Positions 347-53,026 of a stretch of DNA of 64,000 nucleotides are shown piece after piece. The stretch is from assembly GCA_029243395.1 (NCBI GenBank), contig JAQWSE010000002.1, forward strand, positions 124,001-188,000. The letters are read 5' to 3'. The translations under genes were made by a program, and so were the position numbers. Positions within the stretch are counted from its first letter, which is position 1. Each line of letters opens with the position of its first letter. The DNA is from Paracoccaceae bacterium (GTDB lineage: Bacteria > Pseudomonadota > Alphaproteobacteria > Rhodobacterales > Rhodobacteraceae). Under the pieces are notes generated by a model, which saw only the letters and a list, made by a program, of their open reading frames with translations, ran no database searches and was not told the DNA's origin.

Positions 347-3300
347 ATGAACAAAGAAATTACAAATCCATTTAATCCAAATCAGCAAGTTAGATCTTTT
401 GATCAAATAAAGATTTCATTGGCATCGCCTGAAAAGATAGTCAGTTGGTCTTTTGGTGAAATTCGAAAGCCCGAAACAATAAATTATCGAACATTCAAGC
501 CAGAAAGAGACGGCTTATTTTGTGCAAGAATTTTTGGCCCAATCAAAGATTATGAGTGTTTATGTGGCAAATACAAAAGAATGAAGTATAGGGGCGTAAC
601 TTGTGAAAAATGTGGTGTTGAGGTAACCCTTCAAAAGGTTCGTAGGGAGCGGATGGGTCATATAGATTTAGCTTCCCCCGTAGCACACATTTGGTTTCTT
701 AAGTCATTACCGTCGCGGATAGGTTTAATGTTGGATATGACTCTTAGAGACCTAGAAAGAGTTTTATATTTTGAGCAATATATCGTGATTGAACCCGGAT
801 TGACGGACCTTAAACATGGGCAGATGTTGACGGAAGAAGAATTTGTAGATTGTCAGGATCAATTCGGTTCCGATTCTTTTACAGCGGGTATTGGAGCTGA
901 AGCCGTCAGGGAAATTCTCACATCTATTGATCTTGAAGCAGAAGCTGAAAAACTGAGAGCAGAACTTGCAGTAGCCACAGGTGAGTTGAAACCAAAGAAA
1001 ATAATTAAGCGTCTTAAGCTAGTGGAAAACTTTATAGAGGGTGGCAATAGACCAGAGTGGATGGTACTCACTGTAATACCAGTCATTCCGCCGGAACTAA
1101 GACCACTGGTACCGTTAGATGGCGGACGTTTTGCGACTTCAGATTTAAATGATTTATACAGGAGAGTTATAAATAGAAATAATCGTTTAAAGCGTCTCAT
1201 TGAACTTAGAGCTCCTGATATAATAATCCGAAACGAAAAGAGAATGTTACAGGAGTCAGTTGATGCCTTATTTGACAATGGTAGGAGAGGCAGGGTTATT
1301 ACTGGTGGGAATAAAAGACCCTTAAAATCACTGTCTGATATGTTGAAGGGTAAGCAAGGAAGATTTAGACAAAACCTTTTAGGAAAAAGGGTTGATTTTT
1401 CTGGTCGCTCAGTGATTGTTACAGGGCCAGAGTTGAAGTTGCACCAGTGTGGCTTACCAAAAAAAATGGCTCTGGAATTATTTAAACCATTCATCTATTC
1501 ACGCTTAGAGGCTAAAGGCCTTTCTTCAACAGTGAAACAAGCTAAAAAACTTGTTGAAAAGGAAAGACCCGAGGTCTGGGATATTCTAGAAGAGGTCATT
1601 AGAGAGCACCCAGTTTTGCTGAATCGTGCACCTACTTTGCACAGATTAGGGATACAAGCATTCGAACCAATCTTGGTAGAAGGCAAGGCTATTCAACTAC
1701 ATCCTCTCGTATGTTCGGCTTTTAATGCGGATTTTGATGGAGACCAGATGGCTGTTCACATACCGTTAAGTTTAGAAGCGCAGTTGGAGGCTAGAGTGTT
1801 AATGATGTCTACTAACAATGTCTTATCACCAGCCAACGGGAAACCTATAATTGTTCCCTCTCAGGATATGGTTTTAGGATTATATTACCTTTCTTTGGAG
1901 AGCGAGGGGCAAGTTGGACAAGGTAAGATTTTTGCTTCGGTTGAAGAAGTGGAACATGCTATGGAGCTTGGGGTTGTGACCCTTCACACAAAAATTCTTG
2001 CTAGGTTCCCCCAGATTGATGAACAGGGTCTAACATTTTATAAGAGGTTTGAAACGACGCCAGGTCGGTTAAGAATAGGAGCCTTGTTACCAAAAAATCA
2101 TAAAGCCCCCTTCGAAATCGTTAATAGGTTGTTGAGAAAGAAGGAGGTTGGGGAAGTAATTGACACTGTGTATAGACATTGTGGACAAAAGGAATCTGTC
2201 ATATTTTGCGATCAAATAATGCAACTTGGCTTTAGGGAAGCTTTCAGAGCAGGTATATCATTTGGTAAGGATGATATTGTTATACCAGAAAAAAAATGGA
2301 AGCTTGTTGAAGATACCAGAAACCAGGTAAAAGAGTTTGAAAGACAATATATGGATGGTTTAATCACTCAAGGAGAAAAATATAATAAAGTTGTTGATGC
2401 ATGGTCAAATTGCTCAGACTCGGTTGCTAATGCTATGATGAAGGAAATTTCATCCGTACAACCTGATCAGTTAGATGCGGAAAAACAGTTGAATTCAGTT
2501 TATATGATGTCCCATTCTGGTGCTAGAGGTTCTCCAGCTCAAATGAAGCAGTTAGGTGGCATGCGTGGTTTAATGGCAAAGCCTTCTGGTGAAATAATTG
2601 AAACACCTATTATTTCAAATTTTAAGGAAGGTTTGACTGTTTTAGAGTACTTCAATTCTACCCACGGTGCCAGAAAAGGTTTAGCTGATACGGCTTTGAA
2701 GACAGCGAATTCCGGTTATCTCACTCGTCGCCTAGTTGATGTAGCTCAAGACTGCATTATTAGACAGGAAGACTGTGGCACAGATTCATTTATCCAAGTT
2801 TCAGCTGTTATTAATGACGGAGATGTAGTGGCTCCACTTTCTGAAAGAGTATTGGGAAGAGTGGCTGCAGCTGATATAATATCTCCTATAGATCAATCAG
2901 TTCTCGTAAAAGAAGGGGTTATAATTGATGAAAAAATGTCAGAAATTATGGATAACCTTAATTTGCAGAGTGTGAAAATTAGATCTGCTTTGACTTGTTC
3001 TGCTGATGATGGAATTTGTGCTCAATGTTATGGCCGTGATTTAGCCAGGGGTACTAGAGTGAATCCTGGTGAAGCAGTGGGTATAATTGCGGCCCAGTCG
3101 ATTGGAGAACCTGGTACACAACTTACTATGAGAACGTTTCATATTGGCGGTATTGCTCAAGGAGGCTCTCAATCTTTTATTGAAGCAAGTCATGGAGGTC
3201 ATATCAAATTAGTAAATGCCAACCTCATCGAAAACTCAGCTAAAGAGAAAATTGTAATGGGTAGGAACTTGGAAATTTTGATTGAGGATGGACAAGGTGT

Positions 3301-4561
3301 CCAGAGAGCAACTCATAAGGTGGCATTTGGTTCAAAATTGTATGTTAAAGAAGGAGATGAAATCGAGGCAGGACGAAAGTTATTCGAATGGGATCCTTAT
3401 ACACTGCCTATCATCGCAGAAAATAATGGTGTTGCGAAGTTTATCGATCTTATTGCTGGAGTATCTTTACGGGAAGACACGGATGATGCAACTGGAATTG
3501 CTCAGCGCATTGTATCGGATTGGAGGTCTGCTCAAAAAGGTAATGAACTAAAGCCTGAAATAGTGGTTGCAGATTCCAAAACAGGTGAGCCTGTGAAAAG
3601 AGAAAATGGAAATCCTGAGAGACATTCTATGTCTGTGGATGCAATTTTGTCGTTAGAAGATGGTGATGTAGTTAGTGCAGGAGATGTAATAGCAAGGATC
3701 CCAAGAGAGGGAGCTAAGACAAAGGATATCACTGGTGGTCTACCAAGGGTCGCCGAACTATTTGAAGCGAGACGGCCAAAGGATCATGCAATTATTGCTC
3801 AAATAGATGGTCATGTAAGATTTGGTAAAGACTATAAGAATAAATTAAGACTGTCTATTGAACCTCCAGAAGGTGATGGAGACCCCATCGAATACCTAGT
3901 GCCAAAAGGAAAGCACATTCCAGTGAATGAGGGGGATTTCATAAAAAAAGGAGAGAATCTTGTGGATGGAAATCCAGCCCCCCACGATATTCTTGCAATT
4001 TTAGGGGTCGAGGCTTTAGCTGACTATATGATTTCTGAGGTGCAAGATGTTTATAGACTTCAAGGAGTTAAGATAAATGATAAACACATTGAGGTTATTG
4101 TTCGCCAAATGTTACAGAAATGGGAGATTTCCGATAGTGGGGGAACTGTATTATTAAAAGGAGAACAGGTTGATCGTGTAGAGTTTGAGGATATTAATAG
4201 AAAAGCTCTAGAAAAAGGCTACGAACCAGCTAAAGGTGGACCGGTCTTGCTTGGTATAACAAAAGCAAGTTTACAAACGAGAAGTTTTATATCTGCAGCA
4301 TCCTTTCAGGAGACCACCCGTGTCCTAACGGAAGCTTCAACTCAGGGAAAAAGAGATAAACTGATTGGTCTTAAAGAAAATGTAATTGTCGGACGTTTGA
4401 TTCCAGCAGGGACTGGTGGTGCGGCAAGAGATATTCGAAAAATCGCTTCTGATAGAGATGCCAAAATCGTTGAGCAAAAAAGATTAGAAGAAGAAAAATT
4501 AGAAAAATTGAAGGAATCTGCGGGTGAGGAGGAGTTAGCTGGGGTAAGTGAGATCGATTAG
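347..4561 (+). CDS. rpoC: DNA-directed RNA polymerase beta' subunit
   Basis: This is the largest subunit of the core RNA polymerase, with 1404 residues, the normal size for proteobacteria. Visible landmarks are the N-terminal zinc site (CLCGKY...CEKCG, around residues 70-90), the catalytic magnesium loop NADFDGDQM near residue 460, and the second zinc cluster [13 protein letters not shown] near residue 885. The C-terminus carries a short charged Glu/Lys-rich tail. The gene starts at an ATG 63 bp after rpoB and is presumably co-transcribed with it. The 385-bp gap downstream separates it from the str operon. Confidence 0.99.
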
Positions 4562-44722: not shown

Positions 44723-47700
44723 CTATAAATCTTGAACGCTACACTTCTTGTATTTGCTCTTCTTACAGATTCCCGAAAGCTTAAGACTATTTATGATAGC
44801 AGGTGCTGACATAATATTTTCTTGTTCATTTAAAGCCTTGGGAGCTTCCTTATATCCTTTTGTCGAAGAAATATTTAGCCACATATGGGCATAAATATCA
44901 TTTTGTTCAATGCCAGAACCTTCTTTATACTTGAGTCCCAATCGATACTGAGCCTTTGAATTGCCTCGCTTTGCGGCCAACGTGTACCACTTGACAGCTT
45001 CTGTATTATCTTCAGTTACTCCATGGCCATTATCGTACATGTTTGCAAGATTGTATTGACCCCATGAATATTTCTTTTCGGCTGCCAACCTATACCATCT
45101 GATGGCCTCTTGGAAATTCTTATCAACACCTTCACCTCGATAATACATATTGCCAAGATTATTTTGGGCCCAAGAATTCCCTTTATCAGCAGATAGTTTG
45201 TACCACTTTAATGCTTCTTGATCATTTTCTGTAACACCTTTACCGTTGGCATACATCCTGGCTAGATTGTATTGTCCCCATGCATTTCCTTGGTTAGCTG
45301 CTAACCGGTACCAGCGTACGGCCTCTTCATAATCCTTTTCAGTCCCTTTGCCATTATAATATTTGTTTCCAACAGTATTTTGAGCTTTCGCATTTCCTTG
45401 CTCTGCGGAGAGTAAGTACCACCTGAGGGCTTCTTTTTCATCTTTATTGACCCCTTTTCCTTTGGCATACATGTAACCAAGGTTTCTTTGAGCTTTGTTA
45501 TTTCCTTGATCAGCACTGAGGCGATACCATTTTACTGCTTCCTGGTGGTTTTTCTCTATACCTTTACCCCAGTAATATTTGTTGCCAACAGAATTCTGAG
45601 CTGCCGCATTTCCTTGTTCTGCTGAAAGCAAGTACCACTCAAATGCCTTCTTTTCGTCTTTAGGAACACCTTTGCCTTTTTCGTACATATATCCTAAATT
45701 TCTTTGGGCTTTGTCATTGCCTTGTTCAGCACTCATCTGATAGAAATTTACGGCTAGGGAGTGATTTTTCTCTATACCTTTACCCCAATAATATTTGTTA
45801 CCAAGAGCATTTTGAGCCTCGGCATAGCCTTGATCTGCTGACAGCTTATACCATTTGACGGCTTCAGAATTGTCTTCCGCCACTTCTTTACCAAGGTCAT
45901 AAATTTGTCCCACACCATATTGAGCTTCAGCCAGTCCTTGATCAGCAGCGGCCTTATACCATTGCAAGGCTTGTTGGTAATCCTGTTCAACGCCTATTCC
46001 ATCGTAAAACATTTTAGCCAACTCATTTTGAGCGGTATCGTGACCTTGCTTTGCTGCAGATAGGTACCATTTGAAAGCTTCCTGGTAATTTTGAGGAACT
46101 CCCCATCCATGATAATACAGTTCACCCAAACGGTGTTGGGAAGGAGAAAAACCTTGTTCTGCAGATAATCGATACCACCGAGCAGCTTCTTTGTCATCTT
46201 CTGTGATGCCCCCCATACCCATGTCATACATGAGACCCACACTGAATTGTGCCGGGGCACTGCCTTGATCAGCTGCTAACTGATACCATTTCAGGGCTTC
46301 TTCGTCATTTTCGTTTACGCCCTCTCCATTAAAAAACATATCCCCAAGCTCGTTTTGAGCAGGGGCATAACCTTGTTCTGAAGATAATTGATACCATTTG
46401 GCTGCTTCCTGATCATTTTCGGGGGTGCCCTCTCCCTCGTCATACATCCATCCTGCATTATATTGGGCTAAAGCATTCCCTTGTTCAGCACCGAGAAGAT
46501 ACCATTCCAATGCTTCCTGATAGTTTTGGGGAGTCGCTTTTCCATAATAATAAATGTTGCCAAGTTCATTTTGAGCAGGGGCAAAACCTTTTGTTGCCGA
46601 TAATTGGTACCACCAGGCAGCTTCTTGATCATTTTGTGCAACTCCGTCTCCTCTATCGTACATTGTTCCTAAATTATATTGGGCTGAAGCATTCCCTTGC
46701 TCGGCACCGAGCCGATACCATTTTACCGCTTCCTGAAAATCTTGGAGAACCCCTTCCCCAAATTCAAACATTTCTCCTAACTTGTTTGAGGCAGCACCAA
46801 AACCTTGTTCTGCTGATAACTGCATCCATTTTGCAGCTTCCTGATAGTTTTGAAGCGTGCCCGACCCTTCATAATGCATTTTTCCTAAAGTATATGCGGC
46901 TGATGCATTTCCTTTTTCGGCAAGGTCTTTATAGATTTGTAATGCGAGGCCAAAATCACCTTTTTCATAGGCATCGTCTGCATTCTTCAGTAATTTAGCT
47001 TGCTCATCTTTACTTTCGACAAGCGTACCTACCTCACAGCTTAATCCTCTTTCCTTGGCTTCTTTTGAATGATTTTTACCATCGCCCCACATGTCCCAAA
47101 CTTTTTCTCCAGTATCCATTTTGGTTCCGTAAGAGCAAAGATCTTTGTCCGAACAAGCTCTGGGATCATCTTGGCAAGATGTTTCATTAGAGGATGTTTT
47201 TGTGAAATCACATTTCCCAACCACTTCACTATCATCAAACATAAAGCCAGAAGTTATGCTCAGTTGGTTACCTCGGCTCTCAGGATTTGCCAAACGGCCC
47301 GTGCTTTGATCAACGATGTAGTCAACTTCCATGACTTCATCACTACCCTCCGGCGCCATTATCATTTTTTCTTGTGTCACCGTTAAATTGAATTTTTGAG
47401 GTCCTCCCATATTTGCATCCTCATTAATTTTACACTGGCCTTCAAGGGCTGTTCCAATCAGTTTTCTTATCTGTGGCTCAGATTTTAATGCCTCATATGC
47501 CGGGGTTCCCTCATCAATTTTGAAGTTCTCCGTTACTTGATAAAAGGGTAAATTACCGTCTTTATCTTCAGCTAAAATATCTGCACCGTTGGCCAGGAGT
47601 ATTTCAACCACCTCTGGACTTCCCAACATAGCAGCGGAATGCAAAGGTGTTTCACCATCCACAGTGCGAGCCATGACATCCGCACCATTGGCCAGTAATA

Positions 47701-50299
47701 ACTCAATTTTTTCCTTTGATTCAATGGACCAATGTAATGGGGTTTGCTTATATTCATTTGATTGATTGTTCACATTGGCACCATTTTCTATTAATAGTCT
47801 CATGATATCTGCCGTGCCCCAATTAGATGCATAAAGCAGCGGGGTTCTTCCCACACTATCAGAAACTTCAACATCAATGCCTTTAGAAAGAAAAAATTCT
47901 ACCATATATGGAGCGCCAAAAGCTGCAGCAAGATGTAATGGGGTATGACCTCCAAAAGTATCAGAGGCAGATCCCATAATATTCTCGCCCTCTAGGATTT
48001 TGGCTTTTACATCTTCATAGCTAGGAGAATTTGACCACCAGTCCCAGTCACATAATGATGGGCACTCATCAGAATTTTCTAGCGTTTCATTTGACGCTGA
48101 GGCTGTTGCAGTAGTATTCTTAATATCGGTCTCACACTGTAGAAATTCTTCCTCATTCCATAGTTTTCCAGAAAGAATATCAAAGCCTGATAATTCTTCT
48201 GATTCTGAATTAAGAAGCCATCCTAAATAAGGGTCAATTTTAAAAGGAAATGAAAAGCTCTCTCTCCCGTCCGTACTATCCGTACTAGTCATGGTTATTT
48301 GTCCGTCAGACACAATCAACTTGAAAGGGGTTTCGTCTGGAGGAGAACAAACCCATTGTAAGCCCGCATTATTCACTAACACTTCTTTTACTTTAACAAC
48401 GGGAGATAAAAGATTATAAATCTCTGAACCTTCTGGGAATTTATCAATATTTAATAGCCCAAATGGTATATACCCAGTATTGTTTTCAGCTGCGATATTA
48501 GCTCCTAATGAAACTAGGGTTTTTATAGCATCAGGCTCGGAATAATAACTTACTGCTGCATGAAGTGGCGTGTTTCCTTCAGCATTTTTAATGTGCAAAT
48601 CAATACCAAGGTTAACTAATGTTTTGATTGCCAATGGAGACCAGGAAGCTAAATGCAAATATGTTTCTCCATCATTATTTCTTGCGTTGATGTCGGCTCC
48701 GCTGTCAATCAATAGGTTTATGATCTTCAAAAATGAGGGCAGGTAAAGGTCAGTATAGAATAAAGGAGTAAGCCCATCAATATCTCGAGCCTCCAAATCG
48801 GATCCTTCACTGATTAGAAATTCTACGCTCTCTGGAAGGCCAAACATTACTGCATAATGCAATGGGGTCATTAATTCATCATTCGTCCCCTTGACTGGAT
48901 CACCAGCAGCAACTTGGGCTTTAACTTCATCGATGGATACACCATTTCCACCACCCTCCCACCAATCAGAGTCACATAAATTCGAACAGGCTAGGATCCA
49001 TTCAACATTGGCCTGACACTGTACAGCGGATTCCCCCTTACCCATTCTTCCCAAAATAATATCAAAACCTTCTTCTGGGTATTCCGGATCAATTAGTTCA
49101 CCGTAAGGATTTATTTCGTAAGCATATTCATAACTCTCGCCTTCCTTATTGGAAAGTTTCATTTTGCCTTCGGAAACAATCAGTTGAATGGATGGTGATT
49201 TGCCATCAGCCTTTGTGTTACAGACCCATTGTAATTCTTCTTGATTATTTAAGAGTTCTTTGACTTTAGTAACTGGCGTTAGAAGATTATTTATTTCAGA
49301 TCCTTCCGGGAATTTATCAAAATCTAATCGCTCAAAAGGTTTATCGCCATTAGCATCTACAATCAAAATATCGGCTCCATTGGTAACAAGAGCCTTGATC
49401 ATTTCTACTGAATTATTCGATACAGCTAAATGCAAAGGCGTATTTCCCTGCACCAGATCGCGAACATTCAAATCAGCTCCTTGATCGATTAGAAATTCTG
49501 CGATTTCCACTAGGTCAAGCTCTGCTGCAATCCACAATGGCGGGTTTTTGTATTCGCTTGCTTCGCCGTTTATGGGTTCACCTTCGTCCAGTTGCGCTTT
49601 TATATCACTAATGGAAATTTCTGGTTTACTATACCACCAATTGCCATCACATAAATCCGTACATGCTTGAGCCCATGCTGCATTTGCCTTGCATTCTACG
49701 ACCCCTTCTTTTGTCCACACTTTCCCAGACAAAATGTCGATACCACCCTCTCGTTGTTCTGGATTCACTAGCCACCCGGAAATGGGATCAAGTACATAAC
49801 CGTATTCATAAAGCTCTTTGGCTATATTATTGGTGATTTGTATGCTACCTTCAGAGATACTCAACTTTACAGGATCTTGGCCGGGAGGGTTACAAACCCA
49901 TTGTAATTCTTTGTCACTATTTAAGACTTCTTTAATCTCATCCAAATTAAATAAATTTGGCTCGCACTGTAGAAATTCTTCCTCATTCCCTAGTTTTCCG
50001 GAAAGAACGTCAAAGCCCCCCTCTTCGGAGTTTCCAGGTTCAATTAAAAGACCTGAATTGGGATCAATTTCATAAGTAATTGCATAACTTTCCCCATCCA
50101 AAAGAAACATTTCCAATTGCCCTTCAGAAACTCTTATTTGGAAGGGAGCACGATCCGGAGGAGCACACGCCCATTGCAATTCCTTGTTAGTATTAATGAA
50201 CTGCTCAACTTGACTGACTTCTGCTGCCAGGGTCTGGGTCGAAAGAGGGAGAAGCAGCGAAAAGAGCAATATCATTTTTCGGAAGGGGGCTATCTTCAT
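44723..50299 (-). CDS. giant exported ankyrin/Sel1-repeat protein with five copies of an unrecognised Trp-Cys module
   Basis: The protein has 1858 residues. Residues 1-26 are a signal peptide (cleavage after LAA), so it is exported; no transmembrane segment or sorting motif follows. Five related roughly 85-residue modules lie near 32-113, 120-204, 345-430, 637-723 and 944-1031. Copies 1-4 open with LQW-x-C and end in (Q/E)C; copy 5 is divergent. Three CxxLCDxxWW motifs (starting at C213, C438, C746) each precede ankyrin repeats (about 230-345, 455-635, 760-945). A Cys-rich segment (C1042-C1088, with DLCSYGT and EAKERGLSC) resembles short modules of Roseobacter-type cell-wall proteins. Nineteen Sel1 repeats fill 1131-1816, and the tail contains two cysteines. 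Sel1 and ankyrin repeats bind proteins; the partner is unknown. I do not recognise the five-copy module. Confidence 0.85.
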   Translation of the reverse strand: MKIAPFRKMILLFSLLLPLSTQTLAAEVSQVEQFINTNKELQWACAPPDRAPFQIRVSEGQLEMFLLDGESYAITYEIDPNSGLLIEPGNSEEGGFDVLSGKLGNEEEFLQCEPNLFNLDEIKEVLNSDKELQWVCNPPGQDPVKLSISEGSIQITNNIAKELYEYGYVLDPISGWLVNPEQREGGIDILSGKVWTKEGVVECKANAAWAQACTDLCDGNWWYSKPEISISDIKAQLDEGEPINGEASEYKNPPLWIAAELDLVEIAEFLIDQGADLNVRDLVQGNTPLHLAVSNNSVEMIKALVTNGADILIVDANGDKPFERLDFDKFPEGSEINNLLTPVTKVKELLNNQEELQWVCNTKADGKSPSIQLIVSEGKMKLSNKEGESYEYAYEINPYGELIDPEYPEEGFDIILGRMGKGESAVQCQANVEWILACSNLCDSDWWEGGGNGVSIDEVKAQVAAGDPVKGTNDELMTPLHYAVMFGLPESVEFLISEGSDLEARDIDGLTPLFYTDLYLPSFLKIINLLIDSGADINARNNDGETYLHLASWSPLAIKTLVNLGIDLHIKNAEGNTPLHAAVSYYSEPDAIKTLVSLGANIAAENNTGYIPFGLLNIDKFPEGSEIYNLLSPVVKVKEVLVNNAGLQWVCSPPDETPFKLIVSDGQITMTSTDSTDGRESFSFPFKIDPYLGWLLNSESEELSGFDILSGKLWNEEEFLQCETDIKNTTATASASNETLENSDECPSLCDWDWWSNSPSYEDVKAKILEGENIMGSASDTFGGHTPLHLAAAFGAPYMVEFFLSKGIDVEVSDSVGRTPLLYASNWGTADIMRLLIENGANVNNQSNEYKQTPLHWSIESKEKIELLLANGADVMARTVDGETPLHSAAMLGSPEVVEILLANGADILAEDKDGNLPFYQVTENFKIDEGTPAYEALKSEPQIRKLIGTALEGQCKINEDANMGGPQKFNLTVTQEKMIMAPEGSDEVMEVDYIVDQSTGRLANPESRGNQLSITSGFMFDDSEVVGKCDFTKTSSNETSCQDDPRACSDKDLCSYGTKMDTGEKVWDMWGDGKNHSKEAKERGLSCEVGTLVESKDEQAKLLKNADDAYEKGDFGLALQIYKDLAEKGNASAAYTLGKMHYEGSGTLQNYQEAAKWMQLSAEQGFGAASNKLGEMFEFGEGVLQDFQEAVKWYRLGAEQGNASAQYNLGTMYDRGDGVAQNDQEAAWWYQLSATKGFAPAQNELGNIYYYGKATPQNYQEALEWYLLGAEQGNALAQYNAGWMYDEGEGTPENDQEAAKWYQLSSEQGYAPAQNELGDMFFNGEGVNENDEEALKWYQLAADQGSAPAQFSVGLMYDMGMGGITEDDKEAARWYRLSAEQGFSPSQHRLGELYYHGWGVPQNYQEAFKWYLSAAKQGHDTAQNELAKMFYDGIGVEQDYQQALQWYKAAADQGLAEAQYGVGQIYDLGKEVAEDNSEAVKWYKLSADQGYAEAQNALGNKYYWGKGIEKNHSLAVNFYQMSAEQGNDKAQRNLGYMYEKGKGVPKDEKKAFEWYLLSAEQGNAAAQNSVGNKYYWGKGIEKNHQEAVKWYRLSADQGNNKAQRNLGYMYAKGKGVNKDEKEALRWYLLSAEQGNAKAQNTVGNKYYNGKGTEKDYEEAVRWYRLAANQGNAWGQYNLARMYANGKGVTENDQEALKWYKLSADKGNSWAQNNLGNMYYRGEGVDKNFQEAIRWYRLAAEKKYSWGQYNLANMYDNGHGVTEDNTEAVKWYTLAAKRGNSKAQYRLGLKYKEGSGIEQNDIYAHMWLNISSTKGYKEAPKALNEQENIMSAPAIINSLKLSGICKKSKYKKCSVQDL
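44852..46909 (-). repeat. array of 19 Sel1 repeats, arranged in two-repeat units
   Basis: The coding repeat is 108 bp (36 residues), with one 37-residue copy (repeat 7). Alternate repeats resemble each other more than neighbours: one type reads AQN-x-x-GN-x-YY and the other AQ-(Y/R)-NLG-x-MY. Repeats 11 and 13 and repeats 12 and 14 are nearly the same at the protein and DNA level, so the array has grown by duplicating 216-bp pairs. It lies inside the ankyrin/Sel1 gene. Confidence 0.85.
47207..50206 (-). repeat. five dispersed copies of an 85-residue Trp-Cys module in the ankyrin/Sel1 gene
   Basis: Copies lie at about 49961-50206, 49688-49942, 49010-49267, 48131-48391 and 47207-47470. Common features, in order, are a Trp-x-Cys after a short helix (absent Trp in copy 5), a strand with (V/I)-S-(E/D)-G in copies 1-4, Glu/Ser-Tyr or Ser-Phe, an (I/V/L)-D-P or I-N-P turn, a Leu-(I/L/V)-(D/N/E)-P-like segment, GFD-(I/V)-L-SG or similar, and a final Cys. 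The paired Cys would fit a disulfide in an exported protein. Confidence 0.7.
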
Positions 50300-51884: not shown

Positions 51885-53026
51885 TTAAAGCACTATTTCT
51901 CTTACTGGGTCGAAATGATCAAGGTCTCGAGGTTTGTAGATGTATTGGTCGAAAACCTTCTTGTTAAGCTCGACTCCAAGTCCTGGCTTGGTAGGCAATG
52001 AAAAAGCGCCGTTCTTCATCTCCAATGGCTCGATCAGCACGTCCTCTCTCTCTGGCACTGGGATATATTCAAGAATTCTAAAGTTGGGCATGCAGGCGAA
52101 GCATGAATAGAAGCAGCGGTGCATACGGGACCATTGCAGTTGTGCGGGACAACCGGGCAATAGTATGCTTCTGCCATTGCTGCAATTTTACGAAGCTCAT
52201 TCATACCACCGGTATAAATCGCATCTGGTTGTATATAATCGCAGCAATATTTTTCTAAAAGTTCCCTGAACTGGTGGCGGGCAACATAGCGCTCCCCAGC
52301 AGCTATTGGTGTCCGCGTACTATGCTTAAGTTCTACATATGCATTTAAGTTTTCTGGTGGAAGAGGCTCCTCCATGAAGTAAAGATCGAATTCTTCAAAT
52401 CTTTGGGCTAGTCGACGGGCCTGTGGCAGATCAAATCGACCGTGTGCATCTACCATGAGGTGAACGTCGGGACCGACAGCTTCACGTACTTGACGCACGC
52501 ACTCTATAGCAATATTTTCTTGCTGGGGAGACATGGAGTGGGCAGTATAGCCAAAAGGACTCCATTTTAGCGCGCTGAATCCATTCTCAACAGCGCGTGC
52601 AGCACTTTCTGCGTATTCACCTACGCTCGTACTACCCATGCGGGTTTTCATAAACCAATAGTTGCCGTAGCAGGGTACGGTTTCTCGATAGGGTCCGCCA
52701 AAAAGCTCATAGCATGGAATCCCAAGGGCCTTACCCTTGATATCCCAGCAGGCGATTTCAATAGCGCTTAGGGCAACATTAACCAGTAGGTCCGATCGTA
52801 GAAATTGACCTCGATAGCGGTCTTCCCACAGGTATTCAATTGCCCTCGGATCTTTACCGATTACTGTGCGCTTATAATCCTCAATTAGCGCAACCATGGT
52901 GCGTTCAAAGGGTTCGATGGTTGCTTCCCCGACGCCAGTCACGCCCTCATCGGTTTCAACTTCAATGAAAACCCAGTTCCGCCGGTGGGCTTCAACTAGA
53001 TAACTTTTGATATCTGTAATTCTCAT
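51885..53026 (-). pseudogene. mandelate racemase/muconate lactonizing enzyme-family dehydratase, frameshifted near its C-terminus
   Basis: The intact part has enolase-superfamily catalytic residues: K154 (ALKWSP), metal ligands D193, E219 and E245, with H295 (VVPHNCNG) as the general base, the pattern of RspA or galactonate/mannonate-dehydratase relatives. The main frame runs from 53026 but ends in nonsense after IHAS, with a stop at 52034. The expected C-terminus (ACMPNFRILEYIPVPERED...) continues in a second frame to 51885. The switch is near 52099-52100, where an A pair on the + strand (a T run in the gene) is probably one base short. Repaired, the protein would be about 380 residues, normal for the family. 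The ATGA overlap with the next gene shows they form an operon. Confidence 0.85.

What the first reader, a model, noticed from the sequence alone, without database searches (positions are those of the whole stretch)
44723..50299. Giant exported ankyrin/Sel1 protein with an apparently undescribed Trp-Cys module
Five roughly 85-residue modules with a shared pattern (LQW-x-C start, a VSEG-like strand, a (V/I/L)DP turn, a GFD-I-L-SG segment and a terminal Cys) alternate with ankyrin repeats. The first four share the QW-x-C start; the fifth is divergent. I do not recognise the module. The Cys pairing is consistent with a disulfide in an exported protein. Together with ankyrin and 19 Sel1 repeats this suggests a large protein-binding surface outside the cytoplasm.
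Basis: partly seen in the sequence, partly recalled or inferred. Interest (0 to 1): 0.75.

Follow-up and report, generated by a model that had tools for sequence, protein, structure and literature searches.

The report
Exported repeat protein with new disulfide module
A very large protein that a probably marine bacterium appears to export is built from two familiar kinds of binding repeats interleaved with five copies of a small, probably disulfide-locked domain seen here only in its close relatives; it looks like a scaffold for holding other proteins outside the cytoplasm.

Summary
The ORF at 44723-50299 (-) encodes 1858 aa: a signal-like N-terminus, five modules of 83-90 aa, three ankyrin blocks and 19 Sel1 repeats. 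Modules 1-4 are clearly homologous; a profile made without the divergent fifth still recognises it. All 22 cysteines lie in modules, caps, the m5-Sel1 linker and the C-terminus. Pfam, NCBIfam, PHROGs and PDB sequences give no credible family. AlphaFold2 gives m2 a confident all-beta model (pLDDT 87.7); no fold match is significant, the nearest small one being a lipocalin lipoprotein (TM 0.53). The module occurs in 6 of 12 genomes held of the genus and nowhere credible in samples of family, class and phylum. A distant cousin sits in a second ankyrin protein with SH3_3 domains. Block content differs between species, and one copy is an m1/m4 mosaic. In four relatives the next gene combines other W-x-C...C repeats with, in the one scanned, a peptidoglycan-binding domain. 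Best reading: a lineage-specific envelope scaffold. Function is inferred. New domain family in a known kind of protein.

The parts
44723..50299 (-). whole gene, 1858 aa, exported module/ankyrin/Sel1 protein
   Evidence: NG86 dN/dS 0.33 against the G003 ortholog over 1857 codons
50222..50299 (-). N-terminal signal-peptide-like segment (aa 1-26)
   Evidence: most hydrophobic 19-residue window of the protein starts at aa 10; cleavage site judged by eye
49964..50212 (-). module m1 (aa 30-112)
49691..49945 (-). module m2 (aa 119-203), the one folded
49274..49690 (-). CxxLCDxxWW cap and ankyrin block 1 (aa 204-342)
49016..49273 (-). module m3 (aa 343-428)
48401..49015 (-). cap and ankyrin block 2 (aa 429-633)
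48134..48400 (-). module m4 (aa 634-722)
47480..48133 (-). cap and ankyrin block 3 (aa 723-940), absent in G006 and G008
47210..47479 (-). module m5 (aa 941-1030), divergent
44852..46906 (-). 19 Sel1 repeats without cysteine
44741..44767 (-). C-terminal C-x7-C pair (aa 1845-1853)
   Evidence: present in 6 of 6 proteins read

Best explanation
The gene makes a large scaffold protein that is exported by a signal-peptide route and stays in the periplasm or at the cell surface. The Sel1 superhelix and the ankyrin blocks bind partner proteins, perhaps of the cell-wall machinery. The module is a small all-beta domain, probably a meander barrel, whose first strand (QWxC) and last strand are pinned by one disulfide; it ends or starts each solenoid block, spaces the blocks along the chain, and may itself offer a binding face. 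The modules were multiplied before the species compared here split, and the architecture has since been changed by gain or loss of blocks and by at least one crossover inside a module. Shown: repeats, homology, apparent lineage restriction, architecture differences, predicted secondary structure. Inferred: export, barrel closure, disulfide pairing, partner binding, cellular role.
For: Module homology. 22 of 22 cysteines of the window protein lie in modules, caps, the m5-Sel1 linker and the C-terminus, 0 in Ank or Sel1 repeats; each of the 23 module copies holds exactly two. m2 model at pLDDT 87.7 with Cys18 in the first strand and Cys85 in the last. dN/dS 0.33 overall. Module positions m1, m3, m4 and m5 group across two chromosomal locations. 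m1/m4 mosaic in G011. A cousin module sits in an ankyrin protein with two SH3_3 domains. In G006, G008, G010 and G011 the next frame on the same strand starts about 30 bases after this gene's stop and carries two or three other LSWEC...C repeats; the G006 one, the only one scanned, has a peptidoglycan-binding domain (PG_binding_1, E 1.3e-6, 28.9 bits against a cut-off of 23). Precedents for exported Sel1 proteins that bind one partner: ExoR with ExoS (passages of PMC4550343 and PMC7327166) and PA3978 with MltF (passages of PMC10746161).
Against: No partner, expression or localisation data. In the window and G003 the neighbours are different and that next gene is not in the window or in the 14 kb G003 contig, so the link is not general. 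Its repeats show no profile similarity to the module (hhalign E 0.055-0.35, module scores below shuffles). The model output gives strands, not coordinates: barrel closure and Cys-Cys distance were not measured. The m5 model is weak (59.9; the other four models 39-40) and has a strand where m2 has its helix. In the G002 protein six cysteines lie between its first cap and its module, in and near the ankyrin part. dN/dS of m1 is 1.21 and of cap+Ank3 0.86, each on few changes.
Confidence: 0.55

Rival explanations
1. The modules are functional binding domains in their own right: lipocalin- or MliC-like barrels that block cell-wall hydrolases or carry a small ligand, displayed in an array of five on a scaffold.
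For: All-beta model of the size of small lipocalin-like lipoproteins, TM 0.53 to 5cyb. The W/Y-x-C start and terminal C recall the Y-x-C start and late Cys of the MliC sequences read (by eye). A periplasmic Sel1 protein inhibits a lytic transglycosylase (PMC10746161, passages). Peptidoglycan-binding domain in the adjacent gene of one relative.
Against: No profile link to MliC: hhalign E 0.39 for m1-m4, 0.96 for m5, 0.53 for all modules, best hmmsearch score 0.1 bits. The conserved MliC stretches around SGxxY and the late KG are not seen in the modules (by eye). No fold match is significant.
Confidence: 0.2
2. The protein is a secreted effector-like or surface protein that meets eukaryotic cells, such as grazing protists, as is often proposed for bacterial Ank and Sel1 proteins.
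For: Ank plus Sel1 composition, architecture differing between species, and Ank block 2 only 78% identical to G003 against 95-100% for m2-m4 and Ank blocks 1 and 3. Papers on host-associated bacteria mention such repeats (listings and abstract starts only).
Against: No host link was found; record titles name a MAG and two uncultured isolates. A signal-like N-terminus leads to the periplasm first. Secretion systems were not surveyed.
Confidence: 0.15
3. The module is only a structural spacer created by repeat duplication, and the protein has no fixed partner.
For: Block gain or loss and a module crossover between related species; G011 keeps one m4-like module, m5 and Sel1 only.
Against: Two cysteines in 23 of 23 copies; dN/dS 0.33 overall.
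Confidence: 0.1

Closest known systems
ExoR (periplasmic Sel1 protein of Sinorhizobium that binds the sensor kinase ExoS; PMC4550343 and PMC7327166, passages read)
   Same: exported alphaproteobacterial protein made of Sel1 repeats
   Different: 268 residues and six repeats in the passages read; here 1858 residues, 19 repeats, Ank blocks and modules
PA3978 (predicted periplasmic Sel1 inhibitor of MltF in Pseudomonas aeruginosa; PMC10746161, passages read)
   Same: periplasmic Sel1 protein acting by protein binding
   Different: three Sel1 repeats, model almost entirely helical; no ankyrin or beta module is mentioned in the passages read
5cyb lipocalin lipoprotein of Streptococcus pneumoniae (entry title only)
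   Same: 89 residues, TM 0.53 both ways
   Different: 9% identity, Foldseek E 0.66; homology not shown
MliC (PF09864)
   Same: small domain with a Cys near the start (YxC) and a late Cys in the sequences read
   Different: no profile similarity, different conserved core
SlrC/SlrV Sel1 proteins of Haemophilus influenzae (PMC4792463, passages read)
   Same: signal peptide plus Sel1 repeats, numbers varying
   Different: no Ank blocks or modules mentioned in the passages read

Membership tests
Sel1 repeat proteins (PF08238) | Sel1 repeats above the curated score | tested here: met
   19 stretches, 562.5 bits against a cut-off of 30.7
Ankyrin repeat proteins (PF00023, PF12796) | Ank repeats above the curated score | tested here: met
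   PF00023: 9 stretches, 210.3 bits against 21.1; PF12796: 199.9 against 27.3
MliC / PliC (PF09864) | profile match | tested here: not met
   not among the 5 families that matched any of 13 module copies at E 1 or better; hhalign E 0.39-0.96 against a profile of 11 MliC sequences
MliC / PliC (PF09864) | inhibits c-type lysozyme | not testable with these tools
   needs a bench assay
Lipocalin / calycin barrels | closed meander beta-barrel | tested here: inconclusive
   model has seven strands of three or more residues and two two-residue pieces; closure not measured; best TM among the 50 PDB rows shown 0.53 (5cyb, E 0.66), 0 of 994 matches at E 0.001 or better
Any described domain family for the module | match in Pfam, NCBIfam, PHROGs or PDB sequences | tested here: not met
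   13 of 23 copies scanned; best are single-member hits taken as chance: Pfam E 0.0064 (Plasmodium repeat), NCBIfam 0.012, PHROG 0.075; PDB profile search best E 0.13
ExoR | binds and silences ExoS | not testable with these tools
   genes of the ExoS/ChvI pair were not sought

The most novel reading that the evidence does not exclude
The module is a previously undescribed disulfide-pinned beta-barrel family, born or greatly diverged in one Rhodobacteraceae genus, spread into at least two exported ankyrin architectures (with Sel1 and with SH3_3), and working as a set of binding heads that give a periplasmic scaffold several partners at once, for example cell-wall enzymes or the peptidoglycan-binding protein encoded next to it in some relatives.
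Probability: 0.2. Interest if true: 0.6.

Novelty: new variant of a known kind. Interest (0 to 1): 0.4.

Why it matters
Exported Sel1 and ankyrin proteins are widespread, and few have a known partner. Here a domain that four libraries do not hold is interleaved with both repeat types, related species show how such a giant gains and loses blocks, and the domain is small enough for its structure and partner to be tested directly.

Tried and rejected
Weak library hits to the module (Plasmodium repeat, Csy4, DNA ligase, HisF and others) were taken as chance: in Pfam, NCBIfam and PHROGs each was a single member of 13. The class-sample hit in G357 (E 0.0014, 37 of 83 positions, open frame of 101 aa, two stops read through) was taken as chance. 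The m5-type profile gave four further class hits (E 0.0077-0.0465), in ORFs that by eye look ThiF-like, YchF-like, FtsH-like and unrelated. In the genus search at E 10 a seventh genome, G001, had a 17-position match at E 8.4, not counted. MliC membership was rejected. Plasmid tblastn with the short cousin gave 3 of 72,556 records, E 2-8; with m1-m2 no match. Viral contigs: 4 and 83 pattern matches, none a relative. The repeats of the adjacent gene were tested as relatives of the module and rejected: hhalign E 0.055 (m1-m4), 0.35 (m5), 0.15 (all); best module score 1.6 bits against 7.2 for 1150 shuffles. The m5 model was too weak for a fold search, so none was run. Per-region dN/dS values were not argued from, as dS is 0-0.08 in most N-terminal regions.

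Rows left out: profile A1 holds 13 of the 23 module copies. A4 holds 19 of the 20 copies of the four five-module proteins (one identical copy left out), with its four m5 rows trimmed at the start because a first alignment misplaced them. G011 and G002 rows were not given to the structure tool. Of 13 MliC places 11 were used; L060 and L062 were dropped as partial.

Full report
What is there. The ORF 44723-50299 (-) encodes 1858 aa. Pfam finds 19 Sel1 and 9 Ank stretches and, over the modules, only weak hits below cut-off. The five modules are at aa 30-112, 119-203, 343-428, 634-722 and 941-1030. m1-m4 are far above shuffled controls in 6 of 6 pairs; m5 pairs weakly with three of the four. A profile trained without m5 still recognises it (17.9-25.6 bits in five genomes, 12.5 in G002; highest score among 1200 shuffled sequences 8.6), and hhalign of the m1-m4 against the m5 alignment gives 94.9% probability over 65 columns. 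So the five copies are real. In a 13-copy alignment Cys18, Gly60, Leu62, Gly78 and Cys89 (numbering of m4) are invariant.

Layout. The order is signal-like segment, m1, m2, Ank block 1, m3, Ank block 2, m4, Ank block 3, m5, linker, Sel1 x19, C-terminal C-x7-C. Each Ank block begins with a CxxLCDxxWW cap (aa 213, 438, 746). Cap-like starts also occur in other ankyrin frames of the genus: 271 aa in this genome, 516 aa in G010, 780 aa in G008. All 22 cysteines are in modules (10), caps (6), the m5-Sel1 linker (4) or the C-terminus (2). That is circumstantial evidence for disulfides and export, not proof. The G002 protein does have cysteines between and near its ankyrin blocks.

Relatives. Of the 12 genomes of the genus held, 6 carry the module, 23 copies in all (copies used to build the profile match by construction). 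The other six are 60-77% complete, and in G010 the protein is cut by a contig end so that only its Sel1 part was seen; absence there is not shown. Samples of the family (394 genomes), class (385) and phylum (398), each counting the window's own genome and partly overlapping, gave no credible module outside the genus; the one further genome in the family sample, G003, is of the same genus. An m5-type profile over 385 class genomes gave four weak hits taken as chance. The genome-contig scan found three named records: a Rhodobacteraceae MAG (NAT102) and uncultured Alphaproteobacteria isolates AG-414-O15 and AG-404-G18; they hold the same proteins as G003, G006 and G008. That these are marine is recalled, not shown by a call.

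Architecture differences. G003 has the same layout as the window. G006 and G008 lack Ank block 3 and the Cys-rich linker. G011 has one m4-like module, m5 and Sel1, and by eye no Ank. G002, cut by its contig end, has Ank blocks, m5 and Sel1. In the module tree m1 (92/91), m3 (91/93), m4 (98/94) and m5 (100/100) each group; m2 is unresolved, six inner branches are weak, and the tool warns of long branches at the m5 join. The copies therefore most likely arose before these species split. In G011 the first module follows G006 m1 up to about the QWxC motif and m4 from there on (24/30 against 16/30 bases before, 16/30 against 26/30 after): a crossover within the module. Whether the short form is derived or ancestral is open, and an assembly fault cannot be excluded.

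Neighbours. The window and G003 share one set of neighbours; G006, G008 and G011 share another, and G010 has the same next gene. That next gene, on the same strand and starting about 30 bases after the stop, has a signal-like start and three (G006, G008) or two (G010, G011) repeats of 92-96 aa running from LSWEC or LTWEC to a Cys. The G006 copy has a PG_binding_1 domain (E 1.3e-6); the G008 frame is cut by the contig end, and the G010 and G011 frames were not scanned. NCBIfam gives only sub-threshold hits over the same stretch. The repeats recall the module in layout, W-x-C start and terminal Cys, but no profile similarity was found. The gene is not in the window or the 14 kb G003 contig. It is a candidate partner and points to the cell wall.

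A second home. G008 also encodes a 780-aa frame with Ank repeats, a shorter C-to-C segment and two SH3_3 domains. The segment scores 17.2 bits with the m5 profile (best of 1000 shuffles 5.8) and 77 against G002 m5 in local alignment (best shuffle 52, 0 of 1000 reach it). The m1-m4 profile does not recognise it (3.9 bits, below the best shuffle of 11.3). It is thus a distant relative through m5 only.

Fold. With 19 rows AlphaFold2 gives m2 a mean pLDDT of 87.7 and pTM 0.74: a helix at 2-8, then strands at 14-18, 26-31, 34-39, 44-49, 68-70, 75-78 and 81-87 with two-residue pieces at 51-52 and 59-60; the cysteines are in the first and last strands. No coordinates are given, so barrel closure is inferred. 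Foldseek gives 0 of 994 PDB matches at E 0.001 or better. By E the top rows are talin F3, FERM, PH and LolA structures at TM 0.3-0.4; of the 50 rows shown the best TM is 0.53, for the lipocalin lipoprotein 5cyb. In the viral library the best row is an uncharacterized Megaviridae protein, TM 0.62/0.56, E 0.029. The separate four-row m5 model is weak (59.9; the other four models 39-40); its strands from 12 on resemble those of m2, but it has a strand at 4-7 in place of the helix. I read this as a small barrel of a known general type, with homology undecided.

Selection. Window against G003: dN/dS 0.33 over 1857 codons; Sel1 0.22, m2 0.25, cap+Ank1 0.27, m5 0.31, cap+Ank2 0.62, cap+Ank3 0.86, m1 1.21, m3 0; undefined for m4 and the C-terminus, where dS is 0. 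The protein is constrained as a whole.

Function. Two exported Sel1 proteins with known partners (ExoR, PA3978; passages read) and the adjacent peptidoglycan-binding gene suggest protein binding in the envelope. I commit to a scaffold with disulfide-pinned barrels as joints and possible binding heads. No partner is known. Six literature searches listed no paper on such a module by title or abstract start; this covers only the open-licence library and those terms.

Novelty. The module is a new domain family at the sensitivity of these libraries; the protein is a new architecture of a known kind.

Noticed in passing
L016 11937-13667 + (G006); also L017 2-1138 -, L018 13907-15307 +, L031 1752-3152 +: Gene next to the large protein in four relatives: signal-like start and two or three LSWEC...C repeats of 92-96 aa in all four; a peptidoglycan-binding domain was found in the G006 copy, the only one scanned. 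The repeats may be another undescribed Cys-bounded module.
   Followed up: partly
L101 (G008:C13:33500-38500), 1232-3571 +: Second ankyrin protein with a short cousin of the module and two SH3_3 domains; the counterpart frame in G010 (L030, 3527-5074) ends before the module.
   Followed up: partly
window 48401-49015 (-): Ank block 2 is 78% identical to G003 while m2-m4 and Ank blocks 1 and 3 are 95-100%. Synonymous distance is higher there and in the Sel1 part (0.22 and 0.21) than in the modules and other Ank blocks (0-0.08), hinting at exchange or recent homogenisation.
   Followed up: no
window 47000-47209 (-); L029: Cys-rich linker ACSDKDLC...AKERGLSC between m5 and Sel1, with a similar-looking stretch in the G002 protein; absent in G006, G008 and G011.
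   Followed up: no
G000:C8:257500-261000 and G000:C2:239800-241500 (L103, L104): Two further Sel1 proteins (487- and 224-aa frames) in the same genome; by eye both end in or near a C-x7-C like that of the large protein, and neither shows the module.
   Followed up: no
window 52034-53026 (-): The ORF is 330 aa where the G003 counterpart frame is 382 aa, stop to stop; the cause was not examined.
   Followed up: no
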